This document shows, piece by piece, positions 2 to 31,417 of a stretch of 64,000 nucleotides of DNA; within the stretch, counting starts at the first letter, position 1; each line of letters starts with the position of its first letter. The notes below the pieces were generated by a model that was not told the origin of the DNA, made no database searches, and worked only from the letters and a program-made list of their open reading frames with translations. This DNA is from Micromonospora olivasterospora (lineage in GTDB: Bacteria; Actinomycetota; Actinomycetes; Mycobacteriales; Micromonosporaceae): assembly GCF_007830265.1 (NCBI RefSeq), contig NZ_VLKE01000001.1, positions 5,084,001 through 5,148,000 of the forward strand, given 5' to 3'. The position numbers and the translations under genes were made by a program.

Positions 2-3000
2 CCGGCAAACTGGCGTACCGGCGCGCCGGCAGTGTCGGTGACTGTCGAGCAGCACACCGCAGCCGCGGCCAGCCTGGCAGAAAAGCAGTTCACCGCCCTG
101 GCCCACCGCTACGGTGTCGACCCGGCCGGTCACGCGGCGCTGGTCACCTCGTTCCAGCGGGAGTGGGTGGACGGGTACCACACGGTGCTCGCCTCGGCCG
201 GCGGCAGCGCGACGCCCGGGACCCCGGAGGTCGCCGGGGCCCTCGGTACGGTGCCGGGTGGTGCCGGCTCCCGTGTCGGTGGCATGTCGATCGTCGACGT
301 CGTCAGCGTCGGTGATACGGCGTCGGTCAGTGACGTGTCCGTGGCAAGCGGTGCGGTGTTCAGCCCCGATCTCGGCTCCAGGGACACGGATTCGACCGGT
401 TTCGGGGATACGGGTTCGATCGGTGACGTGTCGGTGCTGGACGAACCGGTCGGTGCCGGCTCTGGCGGTCTCGGCGAGCCGGCCGTCGCGGCTACCGGGT
501 CGGCCGGGCAACGAATCCACGACCTCGCCAGCGGCGGCCACGGCCGTGCCAGCGACGCTCAGCTGCGCCGCCTCGCCGCGGACATCGGTATCCAGGCGGC
601 GTCGCCGGACGGGGTCCTGCCCCGACTGTTCGAGGTTTCCAGGGACATCGTCATGGCGGACACGTTCAGCGGGGTGTACTTCGCAGACCCGGCGGCGGCG
701 GATCCGGACGCGGCGGCGGCGGACCGCACGGCGGCGCGGGCGCTGCCGCGGGTGCGGGGATGGTTCACCATCGCCGGGCACCGGAACCTGGCCGAGCGGC
801 TGGCTGACGATCCGGTGCGTCAGGCCTTGTTCCTCCGGATGCTCACCGCCTCGCCCGCCTGGCGACACGCCGTCGCGCAGGCGCGGCAGCGCGGCGGCGA
901 CGCACCCGACATCTTGCTGGTCTGGTGCGACGCGGCATGGCAGGGACCGGGACAGGTCACCTCCTTCGGTGAATGGCTGCGTACCCGGCTGCGCGCCCGG
1001 CGGCTGATGTCGTCCACGCACGAGGTGGACCAGATGCCCGGCGAGTTGCGGCCACACGTGGACGAGCCGGTGCGGTCGGTGTTGTTCTCGGACGCCTCGG
1101 TGGAGTTGTTCGGACCGGATCTCGTGGAGGCGGTACGGACCGCGGACATCATCGACAACGGCCAGGAACCCGGCGTCCGCTGGCCGGACCAGGAGGACTT
1201 CGCCGCCGCTGGCGGCCGGCACCGGTGGGCCGGCAACACCTCCCACGGCCAGTCGCCCGATCCAGCGCAAGACGGCCACCCGTCTGCTCCTGGCCCGGCG
1301 TCCGCGGCCCAGTGGATGTGGGGCCCGTCGCGGGATCCAAAGGCGGAATTGCCGGTGCCGGGCCCTGCCCTCGGACCGGACCACCCGCAGGGTGAGGACC
1401 TGTCCTGGCTGGACGACTGGGATATGTTGCCGATGCCCGGGCTGGCACCTGCCCCGCCGGCAGGCACGGGGCTGCCCTGGCTGCCCTGGCTGCCCGGGCC
1501 GCTGGACGCCCCGGACGCCCCCAGCGCGTCGGCCTGGCAGGCGGGGCCGGCCGCGCCGGCCTGGACGGCGGGGTGGACGGAACCGGGGTGGCCGGTTTCC
1601 GACATTGATGTGACCACCCACGGTGCTGGGATGTCCACCGACCCCGGCCAGCCGCGCGATCAGGCCGGCGACGGCGGGGATCTCGGCGACTGGGCCACCT
1701 GGCAGGGGCCGGACATGGACTGGCAACCATCCCTCGCGCCCTCCCCGGCGGTGACCCGCACCGACGCCGGCACTGTCCACGCCGGCGACACCCCCCATCA
1801 CCCGGCCGACGAGCCACCCACCACCCCCGCCTCGCTGCACCCCGACCAACCCCAACCCACTGCGGGCAGCCAGTGGGTGCGCAACCGGAATGATGCCCGG
1901 ACGCTGTTCGACCAGCACGCCGACCGCATCGCCACCACAACACAGCAGCGGGAACAGCTGCGGCAGTTGTGGAACGTCCTGATCAACCATATGGGCGCCG
2001 ACGGGATCATCACCGTCAGCGAGTCAGCCCTCGCCGCGGCGACATCCACACCGCGGCCGACGGTGCATGACCGGATCGTGGTATTGCGCGGCCGTGGTCT
2101 GCTGCAGCTGGTCCAGGAAGCACGCCCTGGTGTGGCGGCGCGGTACGGGGTGACCGATCCGGGTCAGCCCCGGCAAGCACCATTGCCGGACCTTCCCGAA
2201 GGCAGCCAGTGGGTACGCAACCGGAATGATGCCCAGACGCTGTTCGACCAGCACGCCGACCACATCGCCACCACAACACAGCAGCAGGAACAGCTGCCGC
2301 AGTTGTGGAACGCCCTGATCAACCATATGGGCGCCGACGGGATCATCACCGCCAGCGTGCCAGACCTCGCCGCGGCGACATCCACACCGCAGTCGACGGT
2401 GCATAAGCGGATCGGGGTATTGCGCGGCCGTGGTCTGCTGCAGCTGGTCCAGGAAGCACACGGTGGCGTGGCGGCGCGGTACAGGGTGACCGATCCGGGC
2501 CAGCCCCGGCAAGCACCGGTGCCGGACCTTCCCGAGGGCAGCCAGTGGGTGCGCGACCCGGGCGAGGCCCGGGTCCTGTTCGACCAGCACGCCGGCCACT
2601 TCGCCACCACAACACAGCAGCGGGAACAGCTGCCGCAGTTGTGGAACGCCCTGATCAACCATATGGGCGCCGACGGGATCATCACCGCCAGCGAGCCAGC
2701 CCTCGCCGCAGCGACATCCACACCGCAGCCGACGGTGCATGACCGGATCGTGGCATTACGCGGCCGTGGTCTGCTGCAGCTGGTCCAGGAAGCACGCCCT
2801 GGTGTGGCGGCGCGGTACGGGGTGACCGATCCGGGTCAGCCCCGGCAAGCACCGTTGTCGGACCTTCCCGAGGGCAGCCAGTGGGTACGCAACCGGAATG
2901 ATGCCCGGACGCTGTTCGACCAGCACGCCGGCCACATCGCCACCACAACACGGCAGCGGGAACCGCTGCGGCAGTTGTGGAATGCCTTGATCGACCGGAT

Positions 3001-6000
3001 GGGCGCCGACGGGATCATCACCGCCAGCGAGCCAGCCCTCGCCGCAGCGACATCCACATCGCAGCCGACGGTGCATCGCCGGATCGTGGCATTACGCGGC
3101 CGTGGTCTGCTGCAGCTGGTCCAGGAAACACACAGTCGCGTGGCGGCGCGGTACGCGGTGACCGATCCGGGTCAGCCCCGGCAAGCACCGGTGCCGGGCC
3201 CTGCCCCCGAACCGGACCGCCCGCAGGGTAGTGAGGATCTGTCCCGGCTGAACCACGGGGATACGTCACCGAGGCCCGGGCCGGCACCTGCCCCGTCGGC
3301 GGGCACGGGTCTGCCCGGGCTCTCAGGGCCGCCCGGGTCGCTGGACGACCCGGACGCCCCCACCGCGTCGTCCTGGCCGGCGGGGTGGGCGGAACCGGGG
3401 TGGCCGGTTCCCGGCATTGATGTGACCGCCCACGGTGCTGCGATGTCCACCGACTTCGGCCAGCCGGGCATCGACGATCAGGCCGGCGAGGGCAGCGGGA
3501 ACCTCGGCGACTGGGCCGGCGATGGCGGGAACCTCGGCGACTGGGCCACCTACGAGGTGGGCCCAGCCGGTTCGCTCGATGTGGACCCGGCCGATCTGCT
3601 CTATCTGCTTGAGGCCGTGGGCACGGAACCCGACCCCGGGCCGCAACCGATGGATCCGTCCCGGCCGCAGGCCCCGCTCGGCCCGACATCGTGGTCGCAG
3701 CCCAGCGGCGACCAGCCCAGCCAGTCCCCAGGGACTCAGTCGTTCCCGCCCGGACCGGGTATGCAGGATCCGGCACCTCAGTCGCCGATGCCCGGGCCGG
3801 CACCTGCCCCGCCGGCGGGCACGGGCCTGCCTGGGCTGCCAGGGCTGCCCGGGCCGCTGGACGCCCCGGACGCCCCCACCGCGTCGTCCTGGCCGGCGGG
3901 GTGGGCGGAACCGGCGGGGCCGGTTCCCGGCATTGATGTGACCGCCCACGGTGCTGCGATGTCCACCGACTTCGGCCAGCCGCGCATCGACGATCAGGCC
4001 CGCGAGGGCAGCGGGAACCTCGGCGACTGGGCCGGCGAGGGCGGGAACCTCGGCGACTGGGCCACCTACCAGGGGCCGGACATGGACTGGCAGCCATCCC
4101 TCGCGCCCTCTCCACCGGTGGCCCGCACCGACGCCGGCACTGTCCACGCCGGCGACACCCTCCATCACCCGGCCGACCAGCCACCCACCACGCCCGCCTC
4201 GCCGCACCCCGACCAACCCCAACCCCAACCCCAACCCACTGCGGACAGCCGGCGGGTGCGCGACCCGGGCGAGGCCCGGAGGCTGTTCGACCAGCACGCC
4301 GGCCACATCGCCACCACAACATGGCAGCGGGAACCGCTGCGGCAGTTGTGGAACGCCCTGATCGACCGGATGGACGGCGACGGGATCATCACCGCCAGCG
4401 AGTCAGACCTCGCCGAGGCGACATCCACACCGCAGCCGACGGTGCATCGCCGGATCGGGGTATTGCGCGACCGTGGTCTGCTGCAGCGGGTCCAGGAAGG
4501 TCGCGGTCGCGGGGTGGCGCGGTACGGGGTGAGCGATCCGGGTCAGCCCCGGCAAGCACCGCTGCCGGACCTTCCCGAGGGCAGCCAGTGGGTGCGCGAC
4601 CCGGGCGAGGCCCAGGCGCTGTTCGACCAGCACGCCGGCCACATCGCCACCACAACATCGCAGCGAAGACAGCTGCCGAAGTTGTGGAACGCCCTGATCG
4701 ACCGGATGGGCGCCGACGGGATCATCACCGCCAGCGAGCCAGACCTCGCCGAGGCGACATCCACACCGCAGCAGAGGGTGCATGACCGGATCGGGGTATT
4801 GCGCGACAGTGGTCTGCTGCAGCTGGTCCGAAAAGGTCACGGTGGCGTGGCGGCGCGGTACGGGGTGAGCGATCCGGGTCAGCCCCGGCAAGCACCGCTA
4901 CCGGGCCCTGCCCTCGGACCGGACCGCCCGCAGGGTGAGGACCTGTCCTGGCTGGACCACGGGGGGACGTCGCCGATGCCCGGGCCGGCACCTGCCCCGC
5001 CGGCGGGCACGGGTCTGCCAGGGCTGCCCGGGCCGTTGGACGACCCGGACGCCCCCACCGCGTCGTCCTGGCCGGCGGGGTGGGCGGAACCGGGGTGGCC
5101 GGTACCCGGCATGGGCGTGACCGACGGGCACGGTGCTGCGATGTCCACCGACTTCGGCCAGCCGGGCATCGACGATCAGGCCGGCGAGGGCAGCGGGAAC
5201 CTCGGCGACTGGGCCGGCGACGGCGGGAACCTCGGCGACTGGGCCACCTATGAGGTGGGCCCAGCCGGTTCGCTCGATGTGGACCCGGCCGATCTGCTCT
5301 ATCTGCTTGAGGCCGTGGGCACGGAACCCGACCCCGGGCCGCAACCGATGGATCCGCCCCGGCCGCAGGCCCCGCCCGGCTCGACATCGTGGTCGCAGCC
5401 CAGCGGCGACCAGCCCAGCCAGTCCCCAGGGACTCAGTCGTTCCCGCCCGGACCGGGTATGCAGGATCCGGCACCTCAGTCGCCGACGCCCGGGCCGGCG
5501 ACTGCCCCGCCGGCGGGCACGGGCCTGCCTGGGCTGCCCTGGCTGCCCGGGCCGTTGGACGCCCCGGACGTCCCCACCGCGTCGTCCTGGCCGGCGGGGT
5601 GGGCGGAACCGGGGTGGCCGGTTCCCGGCATTGATGTGACCGCCCACGGTGCTGCGATGTCCACCGACTTCGGCCAGCCGGGCATCGACGATCAGGCCGG
5701 CGAGGGCAGCGGGAACCTCGGCGACTGGGCCGGCGACGGCGGGAACCTCGGCGACTGGGCCACCTACCAGGGGCCGGACATGGACTGGCAGCCATCCCTC
5801 GCGCCCTCTCCAGCGGTGACCCGCACCGACGCCGGCACTGTCCACGCCGGCGACACCCCCCATCACCTGGCCGACCAGCCACCCACCACGCCCGCCTCGC
5901 CGCACCCCGACCAACCCCAACCCCAACCCACTGCGGACAGCCGGCGGGTGCGCGACCCGGGCGAGGCCCGGAGGCTGTTCGACCAGCACGCCGGCCACAT

Positions 6001-8950
6001 CGCCACCACAACATGGCAGCGGGAACCGCTGCGGCAGTTGTGGAACGCCCTGATCGACCGGATGGACGGCGACGGGATCATCACCGCCAGCGAGCCAGAC
6101 CTCGCCGAGGCGACATCCACACCGCAGACGACGGTGCATGACCGGATCGGGGTATTGCGCGACACTGGTCTGCTGCAGCGGGTCCAGGGAGGTCGCGGTC
6201 GCGTGGCGGCGCGGTACGGGGTGAGCGATCCGGGTCAGCCCCGGCAAGCACCGGTGCCGGCCCCTCCCGAGGGCAGCCAGTGGGTGCGCGACCCGGGCGA
6301 GGCCCAGGCGCTGTTCGACCAGCACGCCGGCCACATCGCCACCACAACACGGCGGCGGGAACCGCTGCGGAAATTGTGGAACGCCCTGATCGACCGGATG
6401 GACGACAACGGGATCATCACCGCCAGCGAGTCAGACCTCGCCGAGGCGACATCCACACCGCGGCGGACGGTGCGTGACCGGATCGGGGTATTGCGCGACA
6501 GTGGTCTGCTGCAGCTGGTCCAGGAAAGGCACGGTCGCGTGGCGGCGCGGTACGGGGTGAGCGATCCGGGTCAGCCCCGGCAAGCACCGCTGCCGGGCCC
6601 TGCCCTCGGACCGGACCGCCCGCAGGGTGAGGACCTGTCCTGGCTGGACCACGGGGGGACGTCGCCGATGCCCGGGCCGGCACCTGCCCCGCCGGCGGGC
6701 ACGGGCCTGCCAGCGCTGCCCGGGCCGCTGGACGACCCGGACGCCCCCACGGCATCGTCCTGGCCGGCGGGGCCGGCCGCGTCGTCCTGGCCGGCGGGGT
6801 GGGCGGAACCGGCGGGGCCGGTTCCCGGCATTGATGTGACCGCCCACGGTGCTGCGAACTCCATCGACTTCGGCCAGCCGGGCATCGACGATCAGGCCGG
6901 CGAGGGCAGCGGGAACCTCGGCGACTGGGCCGGCGACGGCGGGAACCTCGGCGACTGGGCCACCTACGAGGTGGGCCCAGCCGGTTCGCTCGATGTGGAC
7001 CCGGCCGATCTGCTCTATCTGCTTGAGGCCGTGGGCACGGAACCCGACCCCGCGCCGCAACCGATGGATCCGCCCCGGCCGCAGGCCCCGCCCGGCCCGA
7101 CATCGTGGTCGCAGCCCAGCGGCGACCAGCCCAGCCAGTCCCCAGGGACTCAGTCGTTCCCGCCCGGACCGGGTATGCAGGATCCGGCACCTCAGTCGCC
7201 GATGCCCGGGCCGGCACCTGCCCCGCCGGCGGACACGGGCCTGCCTGGGCTGCCAGGGCTGCCCGGGCCGCTGGACGCCCCGGACGCCCCCACCGCGTCG
7301 TCCTGGCCGGCGGGGTGGGCGGAACCGGCGGGGCCGGTTCCCGGCATTGATGTGACCGACGGGCACGGTGCTGCGATGTCCACCGACTTCGGCCAGCCGC
7401 GCATCGACGATCAGGCCGGCGAGGGCAGCGGGAACCTCGGCGACTGGGCCGGCGAGGGCGGGAACCTCGGCGACTGGGCCACCTACCAGGGGCCGGACAT
7501 GGACTGGCAGCCATCCCTCGCGCCCTCTCCACCGGTGGCCCGCACCGACGCCGGCACTGTCCACGCCGGCGACACCCTCCATCACCCGGCCGACCAGCCA
7601 CCCACCACGCCCGCCTCGCCGCACCCCGACCAACCCCAACCCCAACCCACTGCGGACAGCCGGCGGGTGCGCGACCCGGGCGAGGCCCAGGCGCTGTTCG
7701 ACCAGCACGCCGGCCACATCGCCACCACAACATCGCAGCGAAGACAGCTGCCGAAGTTGTGGAACGCCCTGATCGACCGGATGGACGACAACGGGATCAT
7801 CACCGCCAGCGAGTCAGACCTCGCCGAGGCGACATCCACACCGCAGCCGACGGTGCATTACCGGATCGTGGCATTGCGCGACAGTGGTCTGCTGCAGCTG
7901 GTCCAGGAAGGTCGCGGTCACGGGGCGGCGCGGTACAGGGTGAGCGATCCGGGTCAGCCCCGGCAAGCATCGTTGCCGGCCCCTCCCGAAGGCAGCCAGT
8001 GGCTGCGCGACCCGGGCGAGGCCCGGATGCTGTTCGACCAGCACGCCGACCACATCGCCACCACAACACGGCAGCGGGAACCGCTGCGGAAATTGTGGAA
8101 CGCCCTGATCGGCCGGATGGACGACAACGGGATCATCACCGTCGGCGAGTCAGACCTCGCCGAGGCGACATCCACACCGCAGCGGACGGTGCATGCCCGG
8201 ATCGGGGTATTGCGCGACCGTGGTCTGCTGCAGCGGGTCCAGGGAGGTCGCGGTCGCGGGGCGGCGCGGTACGGGGTGAGCGATCCGGGTCAGCCCCGGC
8301 AAGCACCGGTGCCGGGCCCTGCCCTCGGACCGGACCGCCCGCAGGGTGAGGACCTGTCCTGGCTGGACCACGGGGGGACGTCGCCGATGCCCGGGCCGGC
8401 GCCTGCCCCGCCGGCGGGCACGGGCCTGCCTGGGCTGCCCTGGCTGCCCGGGCCGCTGGACGCCCCGGACGTCCCCACCGCGTCGTCCTGGCCGGCGGGG
8501 TGGGCGGAACCGGGGTGGCCGGTTCCCGGCATTGATGTGACCGCCCACGGTGCTGCGATGTCCACCGACTTCGGCCAGCCGGGCATCGACGATCAGGCCG
8601 GCGAGGGCAGCGGGAACCTCGGCGACTGGGCCGGCGACGGCGGGAACCTCGGCGACTGGGCCACCTACCAGGGGCCGGACATGGACTGGCAGCCATCCCT
8701 CGCGCCCTCTCCAGCGGTGACCCGCACCGACGCCGGCACTGTCCACGCCGGCGACACCCTCCATCACCCGGCCGACCAGCCACCCACCACCGCCCCACTG
8801 CACCCCGACCACCCCAACCCCAACTCGCTGCGGGCAGCCGGCGGGTGCGCGACCCGGGCGAGGCCCGGAGGCTGTTCGACCAGCACGCCGGCCACATCGC
8901 CACCACAACACGGCAGCGGGAACCGCTGCGGAAAATGTGGAACGCCCTGA
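2..8950 (+). CDS. Giant tandem winged-helix repeat protein, copy 1 (5' end outside window, frameshifted 3' end)
   Basis: The frame is open to the left edge. Codons from position 2 read PANWRTGAPAVS, matching an internal stretch of the second giant protein (23849-31417, around residue 676), so about 675 N-terminal residues probably lie outside the window; the GTG at 32 is not the true start. Order: short helical region (32-180), low-complexity stretch, conserved globular region of unknown function (about 510-1250), then winged-helix units of 112 aa at 1865, 2201, 2537, 2873, 4244, 4580, 5936, 6272, 7655 and 7991. Each unit has a helix (WNALI.RM), a helix-turn-helix (LAAATSTP..TVH.RI) and a wing ending ARYGVSDPG. 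Pro/Gly/Asp/Trp-rich linkers separate groups. The last about 47 residues are out of frame because of a base loss near 8810. The function is unknown; DNA binding is inferred from the fold pattern. No signal peptide can be assessed. Confidence 0.8.
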   Translation, partial: PANWRTGAPAVSVTVEQHTAAAASLAEKQFTALAHRYGVDPAGHAALVTSFQREWVDGYHTVLASAGGSATPGTPEVAGALGTVPGGAGSRVGGMSIVDVVSVGDTASVSDVSVASGAVFSPDLGSRDTDSTGFGDTGSIGDVSVLDEPVGAGSGGLGEPAVAATGSAGQRIHDLASGGHGRASDAQLRRLAADIGIQAASPDGVLPRLFEVSRDIVMADTFSGVYFADPAAADPDAAAADRTAARALPRVRGWFTIAGHRNLAERLADDPVRQALFLRMLTASPAWRHAVAQARQRGGDAPDILLVWCDAAWQGPGQVTSFGEWLRTRLRARRLMSSTHEVDQMPGELRPHVDEPVRSVLFSDASVELFGPDLVEAVRTADIIDNGQEPGVRWPDQEDFAAAGGRHRWAGNTSHGQSPDPAQDGHPSAPGPASAAQWMWGPSRDPKAELPVPGPALGPDHPQGEDLSWLDDWDMLPMPGLAPAPPAGTGLPWLPWLPGPLDAPDAPSASAWQAGPAAPAWTAGWTEPGWPVSDIDVTTHGAGMSTDPGQPRDQAGDGGDLGDWATWQGPDMDWQPSLAPSPAVTRTDAGTVHAGDTPHHPADEPPTTPASLHPDQPQPTAGSQWVRNRNDARTLFDQHADRIATTTQQREQLRQLWNVLINHMGADGIITVSESALAAATSTPRPTVHDRIVVLRGRGLLQLVQEARPGVAARYGVTDPGQPRQAPLPDLPEGSQWVRNRNDAQTLFDQHADHIATTTQQQEQLPQLWNALINHMGADGIITASVPDLAAATSTPQSTVHKRIGVLRGRGLLQLVQEAHGGVAARYRVTDPGQPRQAPVPDLPEGSQWVRDPGEARVLFDQHAGHFATTTQQREQLPQLWNALINHMGADGIITASEPALAAATSTPQPTVHDRIVALRGRGLLQLVQEARPGVAARYGVTDPGQPRQAPLSDLPEGSQWVRNRNDARTLFDQHAGHIATTTRQREPLRQLWNALIDRMGADGIITASEPALAAATSTSQPTVHRRIVALRGRGLLQLVQETHSRVAARYAVTDPGQPRQAPVPGPAPEPDRPQGSEDLSRLNHGDTSPRPGPAPAPSAGTGLPGLSGPPGSLDDPDAPTASSWPAGWAEPGWPVPGIDVTAHGAAMSTDFGQPGIDDQAGEGSGNLGDWAGDGGNLGDWATYEVGPAGSLDVDPADLLYLLEAVGTEPDPGPQPMDPSRPQAPLGPTSWSQPSGDQPSQSPGTQSFPPGPGMQDPAPQSPMPGPAPAPPAGTGLPGLPGLPGPLDAPDAPTASSWPAGWAEPAGPVPGIDVTAHGAAMSTDFGQPRIDDQAREGSGNLGDWAGEGGNLGDWATYQGPDMDWQPSLAPSPPVARTDAGTVHAGDTLHHPADQPPTTPASPHPDQPQPQPQPTADSRRVRDPGEARRLFDQHAGHIATTTWQREPLRQLWNALIDRMDGDGIITASESDLAEATSTPQPTVHRRIGVLRDRGLLQRVQEGRGRGVARYGVSDPGQPRQAPLPDLPEGSQWVRDPGEAQALFDQHAGHIATTTSQRRQLPKLWNALIDRMGADGIITASEPDLAEATSTPQQRVHDRIGVLRDSGLLQLVRKGHGGVAARYGVSDPGQPRQAPLPGPALGPDRPQGEDLSWLDHGGTSPMPGPAPAPPAGTGLPGLPGPLDDPDAPTASSWPAGWAEPGWPVPGMGVTDGHGAAMSTDFGQPGIDDQAGEGSGNLGDWAGDGGNLGDWATYEVGPAGSLDVDPADLLYLLEAVGTEPDPGPQPMDPPRPQAPPGSTSWSQPSGDQPSQSPGTQSFPPGPGMQDPAPQSPTPGPATAPPAGTGLPGLPWLPGPLDAPDVPTASSWPAGWAEPGWPVPGIDVTAHGAAMSTDFGQPGIDDQAGEGSGNLGDWAGDGGNLGDWATYQGPDMDWQPSLAPSPAVTRTDAGTVHAGDTPHHLADQPPTTPASPHPDQPQPQPTADSRRVRDPGEARRLFDQHAGHIATTTWQREPLRQLWNALIDRMDGDGIITASEPDLAEATSTPQTTVHDRIGVLRDTGLLQRVQGGRGRVAARYGVSDPGQPRQAPVPAPPEGSQWVRDPGEAQALFDQHAGHIATTTRRREPLRKLWNALIDRMDDNGIITASESDLAEATSTPRRTVRDRIGVLRDSGLLQLVQERHGRVAARYGVSDPGQPRQAPLPGPALGPDRPQGEDLSWLDHGGTSPMPGPAPAPPAGTGLPALPGPLDDPDAPTASSWPAGPAASSWPAGWAEPAGPVPGIDVTAHGAANSIDFGQPGIDDQAGEGSGNLGDWAGDGGNLGDWATYEVGPAGSLDVDPADLLYLLEAVGTEPDPAPQPMDPPRPQAPPGPTSWSQPSGDQPSQSPGTQSFPPGPGMQDPAPQSPMPGPAPAPPADTGLPGLPGLPGPLDAPDAPTASSWPAGWAEPAGPVPGIDVTDGHGAAMSTDFGQPRIDDQAGEGSGNLGDWAGEGGNLGDWATYQGPDMDWQPSLAPSPPVARTDAGTVHAGDTLHHPADQPPTTPASPHPDQPQPQPTADSRRVRDPGEAQALFDQHAGHIATTTSQRRQLPKLWNALIDRMDDNGIITASESDLAEATSTPQPTVHYRIVALRDSGLLQLVQEGRGHGAARYRVSDPGQPRQASLPAPPEGSQWLRDPGEARMLFDQHADHIATTTRQREPLRKLWNALIGRMDDNGIITVGESDLAEATSTPQRTVHARIGVLRDRGLLQRVQGGRGRGAARYGVSDPGQPRQAPVPGPALGPDRPQGEDLSWLDHGGTSPMPGPAPAPPAGTGLPGLPWLPGPLDAPDVPTASSWPAGWAEPGWPVPGIDVTAHGAAMSTDFGQPGIDDQAGEGSGNLGDWAGDGGNLGDWATYQGPDMDWQPSLAPSPAVTRTDAGTVHAGDTLHHPADQPPTTAPLHPDHPNPNSLRAAGGCATRARPGGCSTSTPATSPPQHGSGNRCGKCGTP
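1865..3190 (+). repeat. Four head-to-tail 336-nt winged-helix units
   Basis: Units start at 1865, 2201, 2537 and 2873, with exact 336-nt (112-aa) spacing. DNA identity between units is very high. Differences cluster in the putative recognition helix, where the two variable residues before TVH and the one after it are RP/D, QS/K, QP/D and QP/R. Each unit ends with a short Pro-rich joiner (PDLPE) before the next GSQWVR start. Confidence 0.85.
4244..8832 (+). repeat. 1.2-1.7-kb super-repeat: two winged-helix units plus linker, three copies
   Basis: Higher-order repeats start at 4244, 5936 and 7655 (spacings 1692, 1719 and about 1177 nt). Each holds two 336-nt winged-helix units followed by a linker with the motifs EDLSWLDHGG, PGPAPAPPAGTGLPGLPG, TASSWPAGWAEP, GNLGDWAGDGGNLGDWATY and DMDWQPSLAPSP. 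The first two copies also carry the LDVDPADLLYLLEAVG block; a further copy lies at about 3555-3640, just upstream of this array. The third copy lacks it, which explains its shorter length. Near-identity points to recent unequal crossing-over or gene conversion. Confidence 0.8.
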
Positions 8951-11862: not shown

Positions 11863-11863
11863 C

Positions 11864-21811: not shown

Positions 21812-21823
21812 ACCGAAAGTACG

Positions 21824-21870: not shown

Positions 21871-21885
21871 TTCATTCAGCGCGGA

Positions 21886-22485: not shown

Positions 22486-22509
22486 CGGGGACGATAGCCG
22501 GCGGGCGCA

Positions 22510-23056: not shown

Positions 23057-23118
23057 TCAGCCGGCCGGCTCGATCTCCTTCGCCAGGTCTATGAAGCCTT
23101 GCCAGCTCGATGGGGTGA
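23057..23118 (-). pseudogene. C-terminal half of a DUF397 gene
   Basis: The minus strand encodes LTFTPSSWQGFIDLAKEIEPAG and stops at 23057-23059, close to the end of the intact DUF397 protein at 32575 (LTFTPASWRGFVDLAKKIG). Upstream of LTF the sequence switches to an ISL3 transposase fragment. The matching N-terminal half lies on the same strand at 32385-32519, so the gene appears split by 9.3 kb of inserted DNA. Confidence 0.65.
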
Positions 23119-23780
23119 AGGTCAGCGGTGATCGACGACCAGGGTCAGGTAGCGTGGCCCTTGCCGTAGGCAACCTCGTCGATGCCGATCCGTTTGAGTC
23201 CGGCCAGTCGATCGGCGCCGGCGGCGGCGTCGACGGCCCGGCCGACGATAGCGACCACGCTGCGCCAGGCGATGCGCAGCAGCCCGGTCACCGCCGACGC
23301 GGACGTGCGCGCGGCCAGCCACGCCGCGGTGTCCTCGAACGCCGTGGTGAACCGGGCACCGTGACGCGCCCACGGCACCGCGATCACCGTCGGCCCGTGC
23401 TCGGCACAGTCGACCCGAGGCACGGCGGCCTCGATGACCACCCGCAGCGTGCCGAAGTCCAGGTGCCGCCACCACCGCCTGCCCCAGCCGCGGTCGTACC
23501 ACGGCGCGCGAGCCCGGCAGCGCCCGCAGCGACGCGCCGCGCCCTTGCGCGGCCGGGCAGAGATCACCAAGACCTCACCGTCGGTGTCGTCATCGAGGCG
23601 CACACCCTCGACGGCGGCCCGTTCCAGCCCTGCCTGTCGATGCAATACTCTGGTCAAACGCACGCCGTTTCCTGATCTTCAGTTCCTGACCTTCGACAAG
23701 CCAGAAACCTGGACGGGACACGGCGTGCCCTGTCGATCAGGGCGTCAACCCACCCACGAGAACATCACAAGAGCCCAAAA
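23119..23780 (-). mobile_element. ISL3-family element, 5' part with one terminal repeat
   Basis: It holds the N-terminal half of an ISL3 transposase. On the plus strand CCCACGAGAACATCACAAGAGCCC (about 23756-23779) resembles CCCACAGAACTAGCAGGAGAGCCC at the end of the other ISL3 piece (about 32361-32384), consistent with the terminal repeats of one element type. The inner end is cut at about 23119, where DUF397 sequence begins. The element is incomplete and cannot move on its own. Confidence 0.55.
23145..23663 (-). pseudogene. ISL3 transposase, N-terminal half
   Basis: 172 codons with the zinc-finger start RRCGRCRARAPWYDRG, then WRHLDFGTLRVVIEAAVPRV and a first catalytic-Asp region LKRIGIDEVAYGKGH. 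A missing C after GGCCAC shifts the frame, after which YLTLVVDHR is encoded in the next frame (23122-23145) before the DUF397 junction. The second Asp and Glu of the DDE site are absent. Confidence 0.7.
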
Positions 23781-23848
23781 TACCGGATCTGTCTTGCCGA
23801 CGCCGAAAGCGGAAGTCCGCTCCGGGGCGGGGAAGGAGCGTTGCGCTG

Positions 23849-26800
23849 TTGGCTGCCGCCGCTTTTTCGACTGTTGAGCTCAGTGAGAGTTCGTTGCGGG
23901 CTTTGGAAGCGTTCACTGGGATGAGGGTGTCCCGGGCGAGGTTGCCGTTGTTGTGGGATGACATCGGCACGCTGGAGATGCTGGCGTATCGGGTGCGTAC
24001 GGTGCTGGGTCCGTTGCTGGAGCAGACGGTCAGGGCGGTCCGGGCGGCGGGGGAGGGTGAGGCCTTCGACCGGTTCGTGGCGCAGACCGTTCCGTTCGTG
24101 GGGAAGATGGCCGAGACGGCCGATCTGATGCTCGCCGTGGTGGAGGCGGAGAAGAAGTTCTTCCTGGAGACGGAGACCGGCAAGCGTACGACGGTGGCGA
24201 TGTTCTCCTTCATGCAGGCCGAGTTCGCCGCCGCCGCCGCGATGTGGTTCTGGAATCCCGTGGGGGCGATGGCGCACCTGGCGGAGGCGCGGACGGTCAT
24301 CCAGGTGGTCCTGCGTTCGGCGTTGGTGCGGTCGGCGGCGAGTGGCACGGCGATGCAGATGTTGTTCATGCCGGGTTCTGCCTTGTTGGCGCAGGTGTCG
24401 ATGATGACCGATGGTTTGCAGTCGGGGGTGAACTGGTCGGCGGTCGGTAAGCAGGCGGCGTACGCGGGGGCGGTGGCGTTGCTGAGCACGGTGGGCGGGC
24501 CGGCGTTGGGCAAGGCCGCTGGCGCGGTCGCCGCCGCGGTCGGCAAACTCGGCCTGTCGGACAGCACCAGGATGCTGTTGACCGATCTGTTGACGCGGCC
24601 GGTGTTGGAGACCGGCACGGAGGGGCTGTTCGGTATCGGTGCCAGCCTGATGGTCGATGGGTACTACGACACCGGCAATCTCGGTGCCGATCTTCTGTCC
24701 GGGGCGCTGTCGGGGGCGGGCGGGGCGGCCGCGAGCGGCCTCGGGCTCGTCGTGAGGCGCGCCATGAATGGGCCCCGGGTTCAGATGCCTCGTATCGACC
24801 TCACGCCCGACGGGAAGCCGGTCATGCCGGTGGCGCCGCCACCGGTTGGTGGAGACACATTCACGGGGTACCGGGCTGGGGTCGATGATCCGAAGGCTGT
24901 GGGTGCCGGCGGGCAGGCCCCGCCGTCCACCCCGCCGCCGCCGCTGCCGGGGTTGAACCTGCCCGCGCCGAAGCTGCTGCACCTGCCCGCGCCGCGCCTG
25001 GACCTGTCGGTGCCGTCGTGGTCGGTGCCGTCGTGGTCGGTGCCGAGCCTGTCGGTGCCGGCTGCGCCGGTGCCGGCGTGGGTTGTGGCAGCGGGTGGGC
25101 CGGTGGTGGAGCGGTGGTATCGGTTCCAGCAGGATCTGGTGGATCGTTACGGTGGGTTGCTGGCCGGGGTGGCTCGGGCGGGCGAGAGCATGGCCGCGCT
25201 CGCCGTGCCGGTCGAGGGGGTTTTCGCCGGGTGGGTCGAGGCCCGGCGGGGTGATCGGGTTGTTGCGGGTTTCCTGTCCGCGGTCGGTCTGCCCGCTGCC
25301 GCGCTGACCGAGGGATTTTTGACGGGTGTTCGGCAGCGGGCGGTGGCCCGGATGGCCGAGGCGTTGGCGTTCCCGGGTGGGCAGGTCCCGGCCGAGGTAC
25401 GGGCGCAGCAGATCGTCGCCGGGCTGCCGGCGGAGTTCGACCGGCAGGCGCTGCGCGCGATTGCGCACCTGGCCGTTCAACACCACATCGACCGGTACCT
25501 CGCCGCCGGCCTACCCACAGGCCCCGGCACGCCGGCAGGCGCTGGCACGTCGTCGGGCGCGGGCGTGCCGTCCGCCGCCGCGGTCGAGGTGGTCGAGAGG
25601 GAAACGCGGAACTGGGTGGACCGAAGCCTCGATGCGATCCTCGGCACCTCCGCGCTGCCCGCAGTGCTGCCCGCAGTGCTGCCCGCTGTGCTGCCCGCTG
25701 TGGTGGCCGGTCCCGACGCCGCGCGGGTCAGTGCCGTGGCGGACGTGGTCCGGCAGGTGGTCACCGACCTGCCCGCCCGTTTCTCGGCTGCGACCATTGC
25801 CGATATCACCGCACCGCACGTCAGCCCGTTCCCGGCGGACGCCCCGGTAAGCTGGCGTACCGGCGCGCCGGCAGTGTCGGTGACTGTCGAGCAGCACACC
25901 GCAGCCGCGGCCAGCCTGGCAGAAAAGCAGTTCACCGCCCTGGCCCACCGCTACGGTGTCGACCCGGCCGGTCACGACACCCTCGCCGAACTGTTCCGAG
26001 GGGACTGGGTGGATGGATACCATCAGGTGCTCACGCAGGCCGACGGCAGCACGCCCGGCATGCCGGGCACTCCGGACACGGCCAGCGCCCGCAGTACGGA
26101 GCCGGGCGGCGCTGCCTTCCGCGTTGACGCCACGCCGATCTACGCCAGCGACACGACCCCGGTCAGTGACGTGTCTGCCGCAAGCGATGGGGTGTTCGGC
26201 CCCGATCTCGGCTCCAGGGACACGGATTCGACCGGTTTCGGGGACTCGGGTTCGATCAGTGGTGTGTCGGTGCTGGACGAACCGGTCGGTGCCGGCTCTG
26301 GCGGTCTCGGCGAGCCGGCCGTCGCGGCTACCGGGTCGGCCGGGCAACGAATCCACGAGCTCGCCAGCGGCGGCTACGGCCGTGCCAGCGACGCTCAGCT
26401 GCGCCGCCTCGCCGCGGACCTCGGTATCCAGACGGCGTCGCCGGACGGGGTCCTGCCCCGACTGTTCGAGGTGTCCAGGGACATCGTCATGGCGGACACG
26501 TTCAGCGGGGTGTACTTCGCAGACCCGGCGGCGGCGGATCCGGACGCGGCGGCGGCGGACCGCACGGCGGCGCGGGCGCTGCCGCGGGTGCGGGGATGGT
26601 TCACCATCGCCGGGCACCGGAACCTGGCCGAGCGGCTGGCCGACGATCCGGTGCGCCAGGCCTTGTTCCTCCGGATGCTCACCGCCTCGCCCGCCTGGCG
26701 ACACGCCGTCGCGCAGGCGCGGCAGCGCGGCGGCGACGCACCCGACATCATGCTGGTCTGGTGCGACGCGGCATGGCAGGCACCGGGACAGGCCACCTCC

Positions 26801-29800
26801 TTCGGTGAATGGCTGCGTACCCGGCTGCGCGCCCGGCGGCTGATGTCGTCCACGCACGAGGTGGACCAGATACCCGGCGAGTTGCGGCCACACGTGGACG
26901 AGCCGGTGCGGTCGGTGTTGTTCTCGGACGCCTCGGTGGAGTTGTTCGGACCGGATCTCGTGGAGGCGGTACGGACCGCGGACATCATCGACAACGGCCA
27001 GGAACCCGGCGTCCGCTGGCCGGACCAGGAGGACTTCGCCGCCGCTGGCGGCCGGCACCGGTGGGCCGGCAACACCTCCCACGGGCAGTCACCCGATCCA
27101 GCGCAAGACGGCCACCCGTCTGCTCCTGGCCCGGCGTCCGCGGCCCAGTGGATGCGGGGCCCGTCGCGGGATCCAAAGGCGGAATTGCCGGTGCCGGGCC
27201 CTGCCCTCGGACCGGACCACCCGCAGGGTGAGGACCTGTCCTGGCTGGACGACTGGGATACGCTGCCGATGTCCGGGCTGGCACCTGCCTCGCCGGCGGA
27301 CACGGGGCTGCCCGGGCCGCTGGACGACTGGGATGCGCTGCCGATGTCCGGGCTGGCACCTGCCTCGCCGGCGGACACGGGGCTGCCCTGGCTGCCCTGG
27401 CCGCTGGACGACCCGGACGCCCCCAGCGCGTCGGCCTGGACGGCAGGGCCGGCCGCGTCGGCCTGGACGGCGGGGTGGACGGAACCGGGGTGGCCGGATC
27501 CCGACATTGATGTGACCACCCACGGTGCTGCGATGTCCACCGACCCCAGCCAGCCGCGCGATCAGGCCGGCGACGGCAGCGGGAACCTCGGCGACTGGGC
27601 CACCTGGCAGGGGCCGGACATGGACTGGCAACCATCCCCCGCGCCCTCCCCGGCGGTGACCCGCACCGACGCCGGCACTGTCCACGCCGGCGACACCCCC
27701 CATCACCCGGCCGACGAGCCACCCACCACCCCCGCCTCGCTGCACCCCGACCAACCCCAACCCACTGCGGGCAGCCAGTGGGTGCGCAACCAGGATGATG
27801 CCCAGACGCTGTTCAACCAGCACGCCGACCACATCGCCACCACAACACAGCAGCAGGAACAGCTGCCGAAGCTGTGGAACGCCCTGATCAACCATATGGG
27901 CGCCGACGGGATCATCACCGTCACCGAGTCAGCCCTCGCCGCAGCGACATCCACACCGCGGCAGACGGTGCATTACCGGATCGGGGTATTACGCGACAGT
28001 GGTCTGCTGCAGCTGGTCCACGAAGCACGCCGTGGTGTGGCGGCGCGGTACAGGGTGAGCGATCCGGGTCAGCCGCCTCGGCCGGCGGGAGCGCCCCGGC
28101 CACGGCCCCGGCAAGCACCGTTGCCGGCCCTTCCCGCGGGCAGCCAGTGGGTGCGCAACCGGGATGAGGCCGAGAGGCTGTTCGACCAGCACGCCGACCA
28201 CATCGCCACCACAACGCAGCAGCGGGTGGATCAGCTGCTGAAGTTGTGGAACGCCCTGATCGACCGGATGGACGACAACGGGATCATCACCGCCAGCGAG
28301 CCAGCCCTCGCCGCGGAGACATCCACACTGCAGCCGACGGTGCATCGCCGGATCGTGGCATTGCGCGACCGTGGTCTGCTGCAGCTGGTCCAGGAAAGTC
28401 GCGGTCACGGGGCGGCGCGGTACAGGGTGAGCGATCCGGGTCAGCCCCGGCAAGCATCGTTGCCGGCCCCTCCCGAGGGCAGCCAGTGGGTGCGCGACCC
28501 GGACGGGGCCCGGAGGCTGTTCGACCAGCACGCCGACCACATCGCCACCACAACACGGCAGCGGGTGGATCAGCTGCTGAAGTTGTGGAACGTCCTGATC
28601 GACCGCATGGACGGCGACGGGATCATCACCGCCACCGAGCGAGCCCTCGCCGCGGAGACATCCACACCGCGGCAGACGGTGCATAACCGGATCGGGGCAT
28701 TGCACGACCGTGGTCTGCTGCAGCTGGTCCAGGAAGCACACGGTGGCGGGGCGGCGCGGTACAGGGTGAGCGATCCGGGTCGGCCTGGGCAAGCATCGGT
28801 GCCGGGCCCTGCCCCCGAACCGGACCGCCGCCCGCAGGGTAGTGAGGACCTGTCCTGGCTGGACCACGGGGATACGTCGCCGATGTCCGGGCTGGTACCT
28901 GCCCCGCTGGCGGGCACGAGCCTGCCCGGGCTGCTGGGCGACCCGGACGCCCCCACCGCGTCGTCCTGGCAGGCGGGGCGGACGGAACCGGGGTGGCCGG
29001 ATCTCGGCATTGATGTGACCGCCCACGGTGCTGGGATGTCCACCGATCCCGGCCAGTCGCGCGATCAGGCCGGCGACGGCAGCGGGAACCTCGGCGACTG
29101 GGCCACCTGGCAGGGGGACCCAGCCCTCGATCCGTTTGATCCGCTCCATCCGGCGTGGGTCGGCCCGCCCACGGCCATGGACACGGAACCCGGCCCCGGG
29201 CCGCAACCGATGGATCCGACCTGGCCGCAGGCCCCGACCGACCCGACATCGTGGTCGCCGCCCAGCGGCGACCAGCCCAGCCAGTCCCCAGGGCCTCAGT
29301 CGATCCCGCCCGGACCGGGCGTACAGGATCCGGCACCTCAGTCGCCGATGTCCGGGCTGGTACCTGCCCCGCTGGCGGGCACGGGGCTGCCCGGGCTGCC
29401 CGGGCTGCTGGGCGACCCGGACGCCCCCACCGCGTCGTCCTGGCAGGCGGGGTGGACGGAACCGGGGTGGCCGGATCTCGGCATTGATGTGACCGCCCAC
29501 GGTGCTGGGATGTCCACCGATGCCGGCCAGCCGCGCATCGACGATCAGGCCGGCGAGGGCAGCGGGAACCCCAGCGACTGGGCCACCTTGCAGGGGCCGG
29601 ACATGGACTGGCAACCATCCCCAGCGGTGACCCGCACCGACGCCGGCACTCTCCACGCCGGCGACACCCCCCATCACCCGGCCGACGAGCCACCCACCAC
29701 CGCCCCACTGCACCCCGACCAACCCCAACCCCAACCCACCGCGGACAGCCAGTGGGTGCGCACCCCGGATGATGCCCGGGCGCTGTTCGACCAGCACGCC

Positions 29801-31417
29801 GACATCGCCACCACAACGCAGCAGCGGGAACAGCTGCCGAAGTTGTGGGACGCCCTGATCGACCGGATGGACGGCGACGGGATCATCACCGCCAGCGAGC
29901 CAGCCCTCGCCAAGGCGACAGTCATACCGCAGCGGACGGTGCATAAACGGATCGTGGCATTGCGCGACCGTGGTCTGCTGCAGCTGGTCCAGGAAGCATA
30001 CGGTGGCGGGGCGGCGCGGTACAGGGTGAGCGATCCGGGTCAGCCCCGGCAAGCATCGTTGCCGGCCCCTCCCGAGGGCAGCCAGTGGGTACGCGACCGG
30101 GATGAGGCCGAGAGGCTGTTCGACCAGCACGCCGACCACATCGCCACCACAACACGGCAGCGGGTGGATCAGCTGCCGAAGTTGTGGAACGCCCTGATCG
30201 ACCGGATGGACGGCGACGGGATCATCACCGCCAGCGAGCCAGCCATCGCCGCGGCGACATCCATACCGGCGTCGACGGTGCATAACCGGATCGTGGCATT
30301 GCGCGACTATGGTCTGCTGCAACTGGTCCAGGAAGCATACGGTGGCGGGGCGGCGCGGTACAGGGTGAGCGATCCGGGTCAGCCTGGGCAAGCATCGGTG
30401 CCGAGCCCTGCCCCCGAACCGGACCGCCGCCCGCAGGGTAGTGAGGACCTCACTGCGGGCAGCCGGTGGGTGCGCGACCGGGATGAGGCCGAGAGGCTGT
30501 TCGAGCAGCACGTCGGCCACATCGCCACCACAACGCAGCAACGGGAACAGCTGCCGAAGTTGTGGAACGCCCTGATCGACCGTATGGACGACGACGGGAT
30601 CATCACCGCCAGCGAGCCAGCCATCGCCGCGGCGACATCCATACCGCGGACGACAGTGCATGACCGGATCGGGGCATTGCGCGACCGTGGTCTGCTGCAG
30701 TTGGTCCAGGAAGGTGACGGTGGCGGGGCGGCGCGGTACGGGGTGAGCGATCCGGGTGAGCCCCGGCAAGCATCGTTGCCGGCCCTTCCCGAGGGCAGCC
30801 AGTGGGTACGCAACCGGAATGATGCCCAGACGCTGTTCGACCAGCACGTCGGCCACATCGCCACCAGAAAACGGCAGCGGGATCAGCTGCCGAAGTTGTG
30901 GGACGCCCTGATCGACCGGATGGACGGCGACGGGATCATCACCGCCAGCGAGCCAGCCATCGCCGCGGCGACATCCATACCGCCGTCGACGGTGCATAAC
31001 CGGATCGTGGCATTGCGCGACCGTGGTCTGCTGCAGCTGGTCCAGGAAGCACACGGTGGCGGGGCGGCGCGGTACAGGGTGACCGATCCGGGTCGGCCTG
31101 GGCAAGCATTGGTGCCGGGCCCTGCCCCCGAACCGGACCGCCGCCCGCAGGGTAGTGAGGACCTGTCCTGGCTGGACCACGGGGATACGTTGGCACCTGC
31201 CCCGCTGGCGGGCACGAGCCTGCCCGGGCTACCCGGGCCGCTGGACGCCCCGGACGCCCCACCGGGTCGTCCTGGCAGGCGGGGTGGACGGACGGACCCG
31301 GGGTGGCCCGATCCCGACATTGACCCCGGCCAGTCGCGCATCGACGATCAGGCCGGCGACGGCGGGAACCCCGGGGCCTGGGCCACCTGGCAGGGGCCGG
31401 ACATGAGGTTTTCCTAA
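23849..31417 (+). CDS. Giant tandem winged-helix repeat protein, copy 2 (2522 aa, 3' truncated)
   Basis: TTG 23849 is chosen because AAGGAG lies 10 nt upstream, though the frame stays open toward the ISL3 end 70 bp away and the true start could be lost. Residues 1-310 form a helical, partly hydrophobic region (FWNPVGAMAHLAEA; LLSGALSGAGGAAASGLGLV) resembling N-termini of large exported or polymorphic-toxin-type actinomycete proteins. Residues 310-430 are Pro-rich with VPSWS repeats. An LPAV x4 run lies near 610. A conserved unknown domain spans 834-1080. Seven winged-helix units start at nt 27770, 28139, 28478, 29744, 30077, 30458 and 30794, with acidic Trp-rich linkers. The end (GPDMRFS) is an IS junction: other copies continue DMDWQPS. 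The 676-1080 region is nearly identical to copy 1. Role unknown; DNA binding inferred. Confidence 0.8.
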   Translation: MAAAAFSTVELSESSLRALEAFTGMRVSRARLPLLWDDIGTLEMLAYRVRTVLGPLLEQTVRAVRAAGEGEAFDRFVAQTVPFVGKMAETADLMLAVVEAEKKFFLETETGKRTTVAMFSFMQAEFAAAAAMWFWNPVGAMAHLAEARTVIQVVLRSALVRSAASGTAMQMLFMPGSALLAQVSMMTDGLQSGVNWSAVGKQAAYAGAVALLSTVGGPALGKAAGAVAAAVGKLGLSDSTRMLLTDLLTRPVLETGTEGLFGIGASLMVDGYYDTGNLGADLLSGALSGAGGAAASGLGLVVRRAMNGPRVQMPRIDLTPDGKPVMPVAPPPVGGDTFTGYRAGVDDPKAVGAGGQAPPSTPPPPLPGLNLPAPKLLHLPAPRLDLSVPSWSVPSWSVPSLSVPAAPVPAWVVAAGGPVVERWYRFQQDLVDRYGGLLAGVARAGESMAALAVPVEGVFAGWVEARRGDRVVAGFLSAVGLPAAALTEGFLTGVRQRAVARMAEALAFPGGQVPAEVRAQQIVAGLPAEFDRQALRAIAHLAVQHHIDRYLAAGLPTGPGTPAGAGTSSGAGVPSAAAVEVVERETRNWVDRSLDAILGTSALPAVLPAVLPAVLPAVVAGPDAARVSAVADVVRQVVTDLPARFSAATIADITAPHVSPFPADAPVSWRTGAPAVSVTVEQHTAAAASLAEKQFTALAHRYGVDPAGHDTLAELFRGDWVDGYHQVLTQADGSTPGMPGTPDTASARSTEPGGAAFRVDATPIYASDTTPVSDVSAASDGVFGPDLGSRDTDSTGFGDSGSISGVSVLDEPVGAGSGGLGEPAVAATGSAGQRIHELASGGYGRASDAQLRRLAADLGIQTASPDGVLPRLFEVSRDIVMADTFSGVYFADPAAADPDAAAADRTAARALPRVRGWFTIAGHRNLAERLADDPVRQALFLRMLTASPAWRHAVAQARQRGGDAPDIMLVWCDAAWQAPGQATSFGEWLRTRLRARRLMSSTHEVDQIPGELRPHVDEPVRSVLFSDASVELFGPDLVEAVRTADIIDNGQEPGVRWPDQEDFAAAGGRHRWAGNTSHGQSPDPAQDGHPSAPGPASAAQWMRGPSRDPKAELPVPGPALGPDHPQGEDLSWLDDWDTLPMSGLAPASPADTGLPGPLDDWDALPMSGLAPASPADTGLPWLPWPLDDPDAPSASAWTAGPAASAWTAGWTEPGWPDPDIDVTTHGAAMSTDPSQPRDQAGDGSGNLGDWATWQGPDMDWQPSPAPSPAVTRTDAGTVHAGDTPHHPADEPPTTPASLHPDQPQPTAGSQWVRNQDDAQTLFNQHADHIATTTQQQEQLPKLWNALINHMGADGIITVTESALAAATSTPRQTVHYRIGVLRDSGLLQLVHEARRGVAARYRVSDPGQPPRPAGAPRPRPRQAPLPALPAGSQWVRNRDEAERLFDQHADHIATTTQQRVDQLLKLWNALIDRMDDNGIITASEPALAAETSTLQPTVHRRIVALRDRGLLQLVQESRGHGAARYRVSDPGQPRQASLPAPPEGSQWVRDPDGARRLFDQHADHIATTTRQRVDQLLKLWNVLIDRMDGDGIITATERALAAETSTPRQTVHNRIGALHDRGLLQLVQEAHGGGAARYRVSDPGRPGQASVPGPAPEPDRRPQGSEDLSWLDHGDTSPMSGLVPAPLAGTSLPGLLGDPDAPTASSWQAGRTEPGWPDLGIDVTAHGAGMSTDPGQSRDQAGDGSGNLGDWATWQGDPALDPFDPLHPAWVGPPTAMDTEPGPGPQPMDPTWPQAPTDPTSWSPPSGDQPSQSPGPQSIPPGPGVQDPAPQSPMSGLVPAPLAGTGLPGLPGLLGDPDAPTASSWQAGWTEPGWPDLGIDVTAHGAGMSTDAGQPRIDDQAGEGSGNPSDWATLQGPDMDWQPSPAVTRTDAGTLHAGDTPHHPADEPPTTAPLHPDQPQPQPTADSQWVRTPDDARALFDQHADIATTTQQREQLPKLWDALIDRMDGDGIITASEPALAKATVIPQRTVHKRIVALRDRGLLQLVQEAYGGGAARYRVSDPGQPRQASLPAPPEGSQWVRDRDEAERLFDQHADHIATTTRQRVDQLPKLWNALIDRMDGDGIITASEPAIAAATSIPASTVHNRIVALRDYGLLQLVQEAYGGGAARYRVSDPGQPGQASVPSPAPEPDRRPQGSEDLTAGSRWVRDRDEAERLFEQHVGHIATTTQQREQLPKLWNALIDRMDDDGIITASEPAIAAATSIPRTTVHDRIGALRDRGLLQLVQEGDGGGAARYGVSDPGEPRQASLPALPEGSQWVRNRNDAQTLFDQHVGHIATRKRQRDQLPKLWDALIDRMDGDGIITASEPAIAAATSIPPSTVHNRIVALRDRGLLQLVQEAHGGGAARYRVTDPGRPGQALVPGPAPEPDRRPQGSEDLSWLDHGDTLAPAPLAGTSLPGLPGPLDAPDAPPGRPGRRGGRTDPGWPDPDIDPGQSRIDDQAGDGGNPGAWATWQGPDMRFS
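27770..28790 (+). repeat. Three tandem winged-helix units
   Basis: Units start at 27770, 28139 and 28478. Recognition-helix variable residues (two before TVH, one after) are RQ/Y, QP/R and RQ/N. Unit 1 has an extra Pro-rich insert (PPRPAGAPRPRP) before the next unit. Units 2 and 3 carry one added residue (RVDQLLKLWN) in the first helix. Confidence 0.8.
29744..31110 (+). repeat. Four tandem winged-helix units
   Basis: Units start at 29744, 30077, 30458 and 30794. Variable residues are QR/K, AS/N, RT/D and PS/N. These units differ from copy 1 by IP in place of TP before the variable pair, and by the wing GGGAARYRVSDPG. The 30077 and 30458 units are separated by a short PEPDRRPQGSEDLTA joiner. 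Confidence 0.8.

What the first reader, a model, noticed from the sequence alone, without database searches (positions are those of the whole stretch)
1865..31110. Nineteen near-identical winged-helix units with hypervariable recognition-helix positions
Seen: 12 units in copy 1 and 7 in copy 2, mostly 112 aa. The helix-turn-helix core is almost invariant, but three positions around TVH vary: two before and one after. Copy 1: RP/D, QS/K, QP/D, QP/R, QP/R, QQ/D, QT/D, RR/D, QP/Y, QR/A, QT/D, QS/R. Copy 2: RQ/Y, QP/R, RQ/N, QR/K, AS/N, RT/D, PS/N. In a winged helix these residues would lie on the DNA-reading face. Invariant scaffold plus variable readout is the logic of TALE-like arrays. I know of no described bacterial protein built as a long tandem winged-helix array of this kind.
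Basis: partly seen in the sequence, partly recalled or inferred. Interest (0 to 1): 0.93.

Follow-up and report, generated by a model that had tools for sequence, protein, structure and literature searches.

The report
Tandem DNA-reading domains under diversifying selection
This bacterium and one relative carry giant proteins built from many copies of a DNA-binding type of domain whose scaffold is nearly constant while the few amino acids expected to touch DNA bases change fastest, which suggests a natural bacterial set of many custom DNA readers, although DNA binding itself has not been shown.

Summary
In detail: 19 winged-helix (wHTH) units lie where stated, with exactly the listed residues. 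The window shows a small part of it. I found 192 unit matches (185 full-length) in 18 giant-gene loci of this genome, G000, and 161 (159 full) in 13 loci of a second Micromonospora genome, G236, probably M. inyonensis. Of 160 genus genomes searched, only these two showed arrays.

In G236 the four most variable of 102 columns are exactly 63, 64, 65 and 69. They align with E. coli CRP Ser179, Arg180, Glu181, Arg185; the last three are CRP's base contacts. pN/pS there is 5-9 in G000 (no excess in the 16 closest pairs) and about 20 or more in G236, against 1.0-1.7 elsewhere in the unit and 0.4-1.0 in other domains of the genes. A tandem-pair model puts them at the start of the recognition helix.

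Best reading: beads-on-a-string DNA readers diversified like PRDM9-type zinc-finger arrays. DNA binding, targets and role are untested. The papers searched describe no such arrays.

The parts
1..8950 (+). Copy 1 main frame: 3437 aa open stop to stop, beginning upstream of the window (G000:C1:5082637); holds 10 of its 12 wHTH units
1865..3178 (+). Block of 4 wHTH units (1865-2170, 2201-2506, 2537-2842, 2873-3178); codes RP/D, QS/K, QP/D, QP/R
4244..4885 (+). Block of 2 units (4244-4549, 4580-4885); codes QP/R, QQ/D
5936..6577 (+). Block of 2 units (5936-6241, 6272-6577); codes QT/D, RR/D
7655..8296 (+). Block of 2 units (7655-7960, 7991-8296); codes QP/Y, QR/A
3179..4243 (+). Long Pro/Gly-rich spacer between blocks (similar ones at 4886-5935, 6578-7654, 8297-8832)
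   Evidence: translation; gaps
8833..9477 (+). Block of 2 units in another frame (ORF 8845-9501, ending DPGQPRRNVSRD*); codes QT/D, QS/R
   Evidence: the same end closes G236 frames of 4379 and 4431 aa
9507..10006 (+). 3' half of a trypsin-like serine protease gene (named by eye from its motifs); the 5' half is at L010:5240-5783, 13.7 kb upstream, and copy 1 lies between them; GCGGG at both junctions
10355..11845 (-). Transposase-like ORF downstream of copy 1 (by eye; IS family not tested)
23145..23663 (-). Transposase relic (ISL3-like by eye) just upstream of copy 2
23849..31417 (+). Copy 2: one open frame, 2522 aa from TTG
23864..24808 (+). N-terminal ~305-315-aa domain found in other family members too; no Pfam or NCBIfam match
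25889..27298 (+). Middle region (about aa 681-1150), pN/pS about 0.48 among 13 paralogs
27770..28786 (+). Block of 3 units (27770-28072, 28139-28447, 28478-28786); codes RQ/Y, QP/R, RQ/N
29744..30385 (+). Block of 2 units (29744-30046, 30077-30385); codes QR/K, AS/N
30458..31099 (+). Block of 2 units (30458-30763, 30794-31099); codes RT/D, PS/N
31506..32349 (+). Transposase-like fragments in two frames just downstream of copy 2 (by eye)

Best explanation
These are giant proteins that display strings of winged-helix DNA-reading modules. Each 112-aa repeat holds one folded wHTH on a short linker. Residues 64, 65 and 69 of its recognition helix, with 63 just before it, are predicted to read bases in the major groove, while the near-constant T66, V67 and R70 keep the helix and its backbone contacts. 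Blocks of 2-5 units would bind composite sites by avidity. Paralogous genes carry different sets of readers, made by duplication of units and blocks, recombination within a genome and strong diversifying selection on the readout residues. Shown: the units, the arrays, the repertoire in two species, the selection pattern, the alignment to base-contact positions. Inferred: DNA binding, sequence specificity, avidity. Inferred and less certain, the role: recognition of changing non-self DNA (mobile elements, phage) or of DNA in a competitor, because the same N-terminal domain occurs in very large mosaic proteins of the kind met in bacterial conflict.
Confidence: 0.7

Rival explanations
1. The variable face binds protein, not DNA: the wHTH units are a display scaffold whose exposed helix start is diversified for partner choice or to escape recognition.
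For: The N-terminal domain of the family also occurs in giant proteins with other modules, WD40-like repeats among them by eye; net charge near zero; wHTH domains can mediate protein contacts (recalled).
Against: The fastest sites are the CRP base-contact positions rather than a general exposed surface; T66 and R70 beside them stay 96-98% constant; residues at 64 and 69 are mostly polar.
Confidence: 0.12
2. Non-specific or weakly specific DNA coating: arrays package or tether DNA, and the variation is tolerated.
For: Many units per protein, a low-confidence (probably flexible) linker, large copy number.
Against: Tolerance predicts pN/pS near that of the rest of the unit; it is several-fold (G000) to over tenfold (G236) higher at the predicted base contacts.
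Confidence: 0.08
3. The units read RNA or single strands rather than double-stranded DNA.
For: Pfam matches to the SelB winged helix, an RNA-binding wHTH; SelB with SECIS RNA (2uwm) among the Foldseek rows, E 0.026.
Against: The variable positions match the DNA major-groove readout of CRP.
Confidence: 0.06
4. Decaying, selfish repeats: relaxed selection plus gene conversion and IS activity, no function.
For: 15 of 165 adjacent unit junctions out of frame in G000; repeated, IS-rich flanks; copy 1 split into frames and lying in a broken protease gene.
Against: Only 3 of 143 junctions out of frame in G236; middle region under purifying selection; relaxation alone would not raise amino-acid change at four sites while synonymous change there stays low.
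Confidence: 0.04

Closest known systems
PRDM9 / polydactyl C2H2 zinc-finger arrays
   Same: Tandem near-identical DNA-binding repeats; positive selection at DNA-recognising positions and concerted evolution (PMC8925151, passages)
   Different: wHTH, no conserved Cys; 112-aa repeats; bacterial; many paralogous giant genes; DNA binding unproven
TALE and TALE-like proteins
   Same: Constant scaffold plus variable readout; bacterial
   Different: TALE repeats are ~34 aa and pack into a superhelix (recalled); here 112-aa repeats of globular domains with linker pLDDT <50. A published screen for TALE-like repeats tested only 30-43-aa repeats (PMC5472282, abstract and passages) and so could not have caught these
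CRP/FNR family wHTH
   Same: Fold and alignment register; highest structural Z
   Different: One HTH per chain with a cyclic-nucleotide or other sensor domain (recalled); no such domain among the Pfam matches listed here
MarR / HTH_20 / IclR wHTH regulators
   Same: Pfam matches to the units
   Different: Standalone dimeric regulators; no long hypervariable arrays known to me (recalled)
Polymorphic-toxin-type giant proteins
   Same: Large mosaic proteins with a constant N-terminus and varied downstream parts
   Different: No known trafficking or toxin domain detected by Pfam/NCBIfam in the pieces scanned

Membership tests
TALE / TALE-like | 33-35-aa two-helix repeat | tested here: not met
   Repeat is 112 aa with a wHTH fold; TALE repeat length recalled
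TALE / TALE-like | Repeats pack into one continuous superhelix | tested here: inconclusive
   Linker 102-107 has pLDDT <50 and pTM is 0.51
C2H2 zinc-finger arrays | Cys2-His2 zinc ligands | tested here: not met
   No column of 180 units has Cys as its commonest residue
C2H2 zinc-finger arrays | Diversifying selection on DNA-contact residues (as in PRDM9) | tested here: met
   contact positions inferred from CRP
CRP/FNR | wHTH with recognition helix in CRP register | tested here: met
CRP/FNR | N-terminal cyclic-nucleotide-binding domain | tested here: not met
   None among the Pfam matches listed for P0001 (25 of 26 shown), P0002 (16) and three pieces of copy 2 (none)
Diversity-generating retroelement target | Adenine-specific substitution throughout a variable repeat | tested here: not met
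   The first base A of codon 66, between variable codons 65 and 69, is kept in 177 of 180 units
Diversity-generating retroelement target | Dedicated reverse transcriptase and template repeat | tested here: inconclusive
Sequence-specific DNA-binding protein | Binds specific DNA | not testable with these tools
   Needs bench work
Polymorphic toxin / type VII substrate | Recognised trafficking domain at the N-terminus | tested here: inconclusive
   No Pfam/NCBIfam match of copy 2's N-terminal piece at E<=10, no PDB sequence match, AlphaFold model unusable, pLDDT 37
Known anti-phage defence system | PADLOC family match outside the HTH | tested here: not met
   P0002: 4 matches, each within wHTH units and to the C-terminal ends of CARF/Csa3 models; P0014: none; only these two proteins were scanned

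The most novel reading that the evidence does not exclude
Each of these two Micromonospora genomes carries a combinatorial repertoire of custom DNA readers: over a dozen giant genes, each with about 5-20 winged-helix modules that obey a learnable residue-to-base code, evolving under arms-race selection to recognise changing DNA of mobile elements, phages or competitors. It would be a bacterial, winged-helix counterpart of the polydactyl zinc-finger repertoire of vertebrates.
Probability: 0.35. Interest if true: 0.97.

Novelty: categorically new. Interest (0 to 1): 0.9.

Why it matters
If the units bind DNA as predicted, this would be a further natural way, beside zinc fingers and TALEs, of building modular DNA recognition, and its 315 distinct natural unit sequences (175 + 140) are material for learning a winged-helix recognition code. 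It would also pose a clear question: what DNA changes so fast that a bacterium diversifies more than a dozen giant genes to follow it? Binding assays on short blocks make the question testable.

Tried and rejected
Homologues outside the genus: two genome-contig scans with unit alignments found none (the tool says the window's own or very near genomes may be left out). Family search: 2 of 200 genomes matched, G000 and one weak partial match. Order search: 17 of 298, but the 16 besides G000 have one weak match each, E 2e-5 to 9e-4, read here as ordinary wHTH genes without a further test. Genus: 10 of 160; G000 and G236 have arrays, 8 have one weak partial match. These searches score only part of the first-look candidates per genome.

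Diversity-generating retroelement as source of the variation: not supported, because the first A of codon 66, between variable codons, is kept in 177 of 180; reverse transcriptases exist in both genomes but were not typed.

N-terminal domain: no Pfam, NCBIfam or PDB-sequence relative; the AlphaFold model has pLDDT 37 and was neither interpreted nor fold-searched. I recall a likeness to CpnT-type N-termini, and of the middle region to 'lonely Cys' domains; no call confirmed either, and a paper search for 'lonely Cys domain' returned none.

Conserved neighbour genes: the flank comparisons were swamped by shadow frames and IS elements; no partner gene is claimed. A transposon with terminal inverted repeats carrying the array genes was not found; only copy 1 was resolved as an insertion.

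Targeted mutation instead of selection: third bases at codons 63, 64, 65 and 69 are the commonest base in 161-177 of 180, but GC3 of the units is 0.825, so this decides little. pN/pS above 1 in the rest of the unit may partly reflect GC bias; the same-gene controls guard against over-reading it.

Literature: searches list no description of hypervariable tandem wHTH arrays (I judged by titles and abstract starts); the library lacks most subscription papers and all bioRxiv preprints.

Full report
WHAT IS THERE. The window lies at G000:C1:5084001-5148000 of a 7.07-Mb, two-contig genome. Copy 2 is a single 2522-aa frame. Copy 1 is split: its N-terminal domain lies upstream of the window in one frame (L010:8036-9091), ten units lie in a 3437-aa frame, and the last two in another frame.

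HOW FAR IT EXTENDS. A search of the own genome returned 150 matches, which is the number scored, of 230 candidates. A profile search of the fetched regions gave 187 hits, 180 of them full length, in 17 loci. One more locus (G000:C1:2938266) added 5 full ones: 192 matches, 185 full, in 18 loci. In the genus search 10 of 160 genomes had matches at E<=0.001; only G000 and G236 had arrays, the other 8 having one weak partial match each. G236 gave 161 hits, 159 full, in 13 loci, including single frames of 4379, 4431, 4443, 4983 and 10,625 aa. The length of G236 C1 (3,286,777) equals that of the contig carrying P0003, which its source names Micromonospora inyonensis, so G236 is probably that species. 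The counts are lower bounds, because not all candidates were scored and only some regions fetched. Other relatives found are few: P0013 (Micromonospora sp. NPDC048830, 4 units) and P0008 (Micromonospora sp. CPCC 206060, 1 unit).

WHICH SITES VARY. The column statistics use 180 G000 units (7 partial hits and the 5 units of the 18th locus left out) and 157 G236 units (of 159 full; two were dropped by the script because the extended reading ran off or held a stop). In G000 column 69 (the residue after TVH) is the most variable of 102 (2.94 bits, 11 residue types); 65, 63 and 64 rank third, fourth and eighth. In G236 the top four are 69, 65, 63, 64. No unit protein is shared between the two genomes (175 and 140 distinct), and the nearest neighbour of a unit is in its own genome for 323 of 337; this fits concerted evolution or separate expansion. 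There are 94 distinct four-residue codes in G000, 62 in G236, 23 shared; fewer than free shuffling of the four columns would give (127 and 94), as expected of related units. Thinning to representatives under 90% identical outside columns 61-71 leaves the pattern weaker but present: G000 (95 units) 69, 65, 63 on top with 64 twelfth; G236 (33 units) 65, 69, 53, 64, with 63 seventh. Among pairs with at most 2 differences outside 61-71, the code is the same in 11 and different in 1 (G000), the same in 31 and different in 19 (G236); G236_C2_1547872 and 1549696 are identical outside 61-71 and differ at 69.

SELECTION. Pairwise pN/pS at 63-65 and 69 is 5.3 over all G000 pairs, 6.5 for nearest neighbours and 5.8-8.9 in the distance bins from 2 to 20%; outside 61-71 it is 1.04-1.68. 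In the closest G000 bin (under 2%, 16 pairs) the readout sites show no excess (0.93; 3 N, 1 S). In G236 the ratio is 22.8 over all pairs (39,640 N against 618 S) and 26 for nearest neighbours (147 N, 2 S), with 1.15-1.49 outside. Each G000 unit against its best G236 match gives 6.1 against 1.55. Controls in the same genes, 13 paralogs each: middle region 0.41-0.50 and N-terminal domain 0.46-0.97. Counts are of pairs, not independent events. The code follows scaffold relatedness (r 0.26 and 0.17, above permutations) but less than four other variable columns do (r 0.49, 0.58). Adjacent units carry the same code in 8 of 115 (G000) and 5 of 102 (G236) cases, more than the 1.1% and 2.4% of random pairs: neighbours are often recent duplicates, yet most differ in code.

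HOW IT MOST LIKELY WORKS. Blocks of mostly 2-5 units on ~10-aa linkers, and blocks on long Pro-rich spacers, suggest beads on a string: each unit reads a few base pairs weakly and a block gains affinity by avidity. This is inference. Net charge near zero and frequent proline at 63 and 65 count against strong single-unit binding. The array genes share a ~305-aa N-terminal domain. In the genus it occurs in 10 of 160 genomes, two of them weakly: in frames of 1971-14,824 aa in six genomes without arrays, and at the start of a 19,107-aa frame in G236. Later parts of that frame include WD40-like repeats (by eye). This polymorphic design and the selection pattern favour a role in conflict, but neither location nor target is known; PADLOC gives only wHTH matches for the one array protein scanned.

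MOBILITY. Copy 1 sits inside a trypsin-like protease gene. The two halves (L010:5240-5783 and window 9507-10000) match adjacent, 5-bp-overlapping parts of an intact paralog (L144) at 73% and 89%; the 13.7-kb insert is flanked by GCGGG and also holds an IS with its own transposase. How it moved is not settled.

COMPARISON. It works like positively selected zinc-finger arrays (PMC8925151, passages) and shares TALE logic, but is a member of neither (membership table). The literature searches listed nothing of the kind; a TALE-inspired repeat screen was limited to 30-43-aa repeats (PMC5472282, abstract and passages). I rate it categorically new as a system built from a known fold, with DNA binding the untested step.

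Noticed in passing
L010:5240-5783 and window:9507-10006: A trypsin-like serine protease gene is split by a 13.7-kb insert containing copy 1 and an IS; an intact paralog (73% and 89% identical to the two halves) lies at G000:C1:5497500-5499900 (L144), and GCGGG stands at both junctions.
   Followed up: yes
L136-L138 (G236:C1:179000-236900): A 19,107-aa open frame headed by the same N-terminal domain; six array-less Micromonospora genomes hold that domain in frames of 1971-14,824 aa.
   Followed up: partly
P0007 (own genome, 4007 aa): A giant protein with LuxR-type HTH modules plus three diverged wHTH units.
   Followed up: no
P0008 (Micromonospora sp. CPCC 206060): One unit of this family followed by WD40-type repeats.
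   Followed up: no
G000 array loci: 15 of 165 adjacent unit junctions are out of frame, 13 of them consistent with one missing base, against 3 of 143 in G236; sequencing error or real decay was not settled.
   Followed up: partly
G236:C2:3108652-3120067 and 3173062-3182969: Two array loci in opposite orientation share 5992 bp of upstream DNA at 99.98% identity: a recent inverted duplication.
   Followed up: no
Downstream of array genes in L012, L022, L075, L076: A conserved 138-143-bp tail follows the stop of four array genes ending RRNVSRD, and part of the same tail lies upstream of copy 1.
   Followed up: partly
L021:4053-6002 (-): One array gene continues into a C-terminal region with a DGYCVLSA motif that looks like an OTU-type cysteine protease (recalled likeness; the Pfam scan matched only the wHTH part).
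   Followed up: no
G000:C2 (126 kb contig):18647-29233: A 13-unit, 3529-aa (stop to stop) array gene lies on the small second contig, perhaps a plasmid.
   Followed up: no
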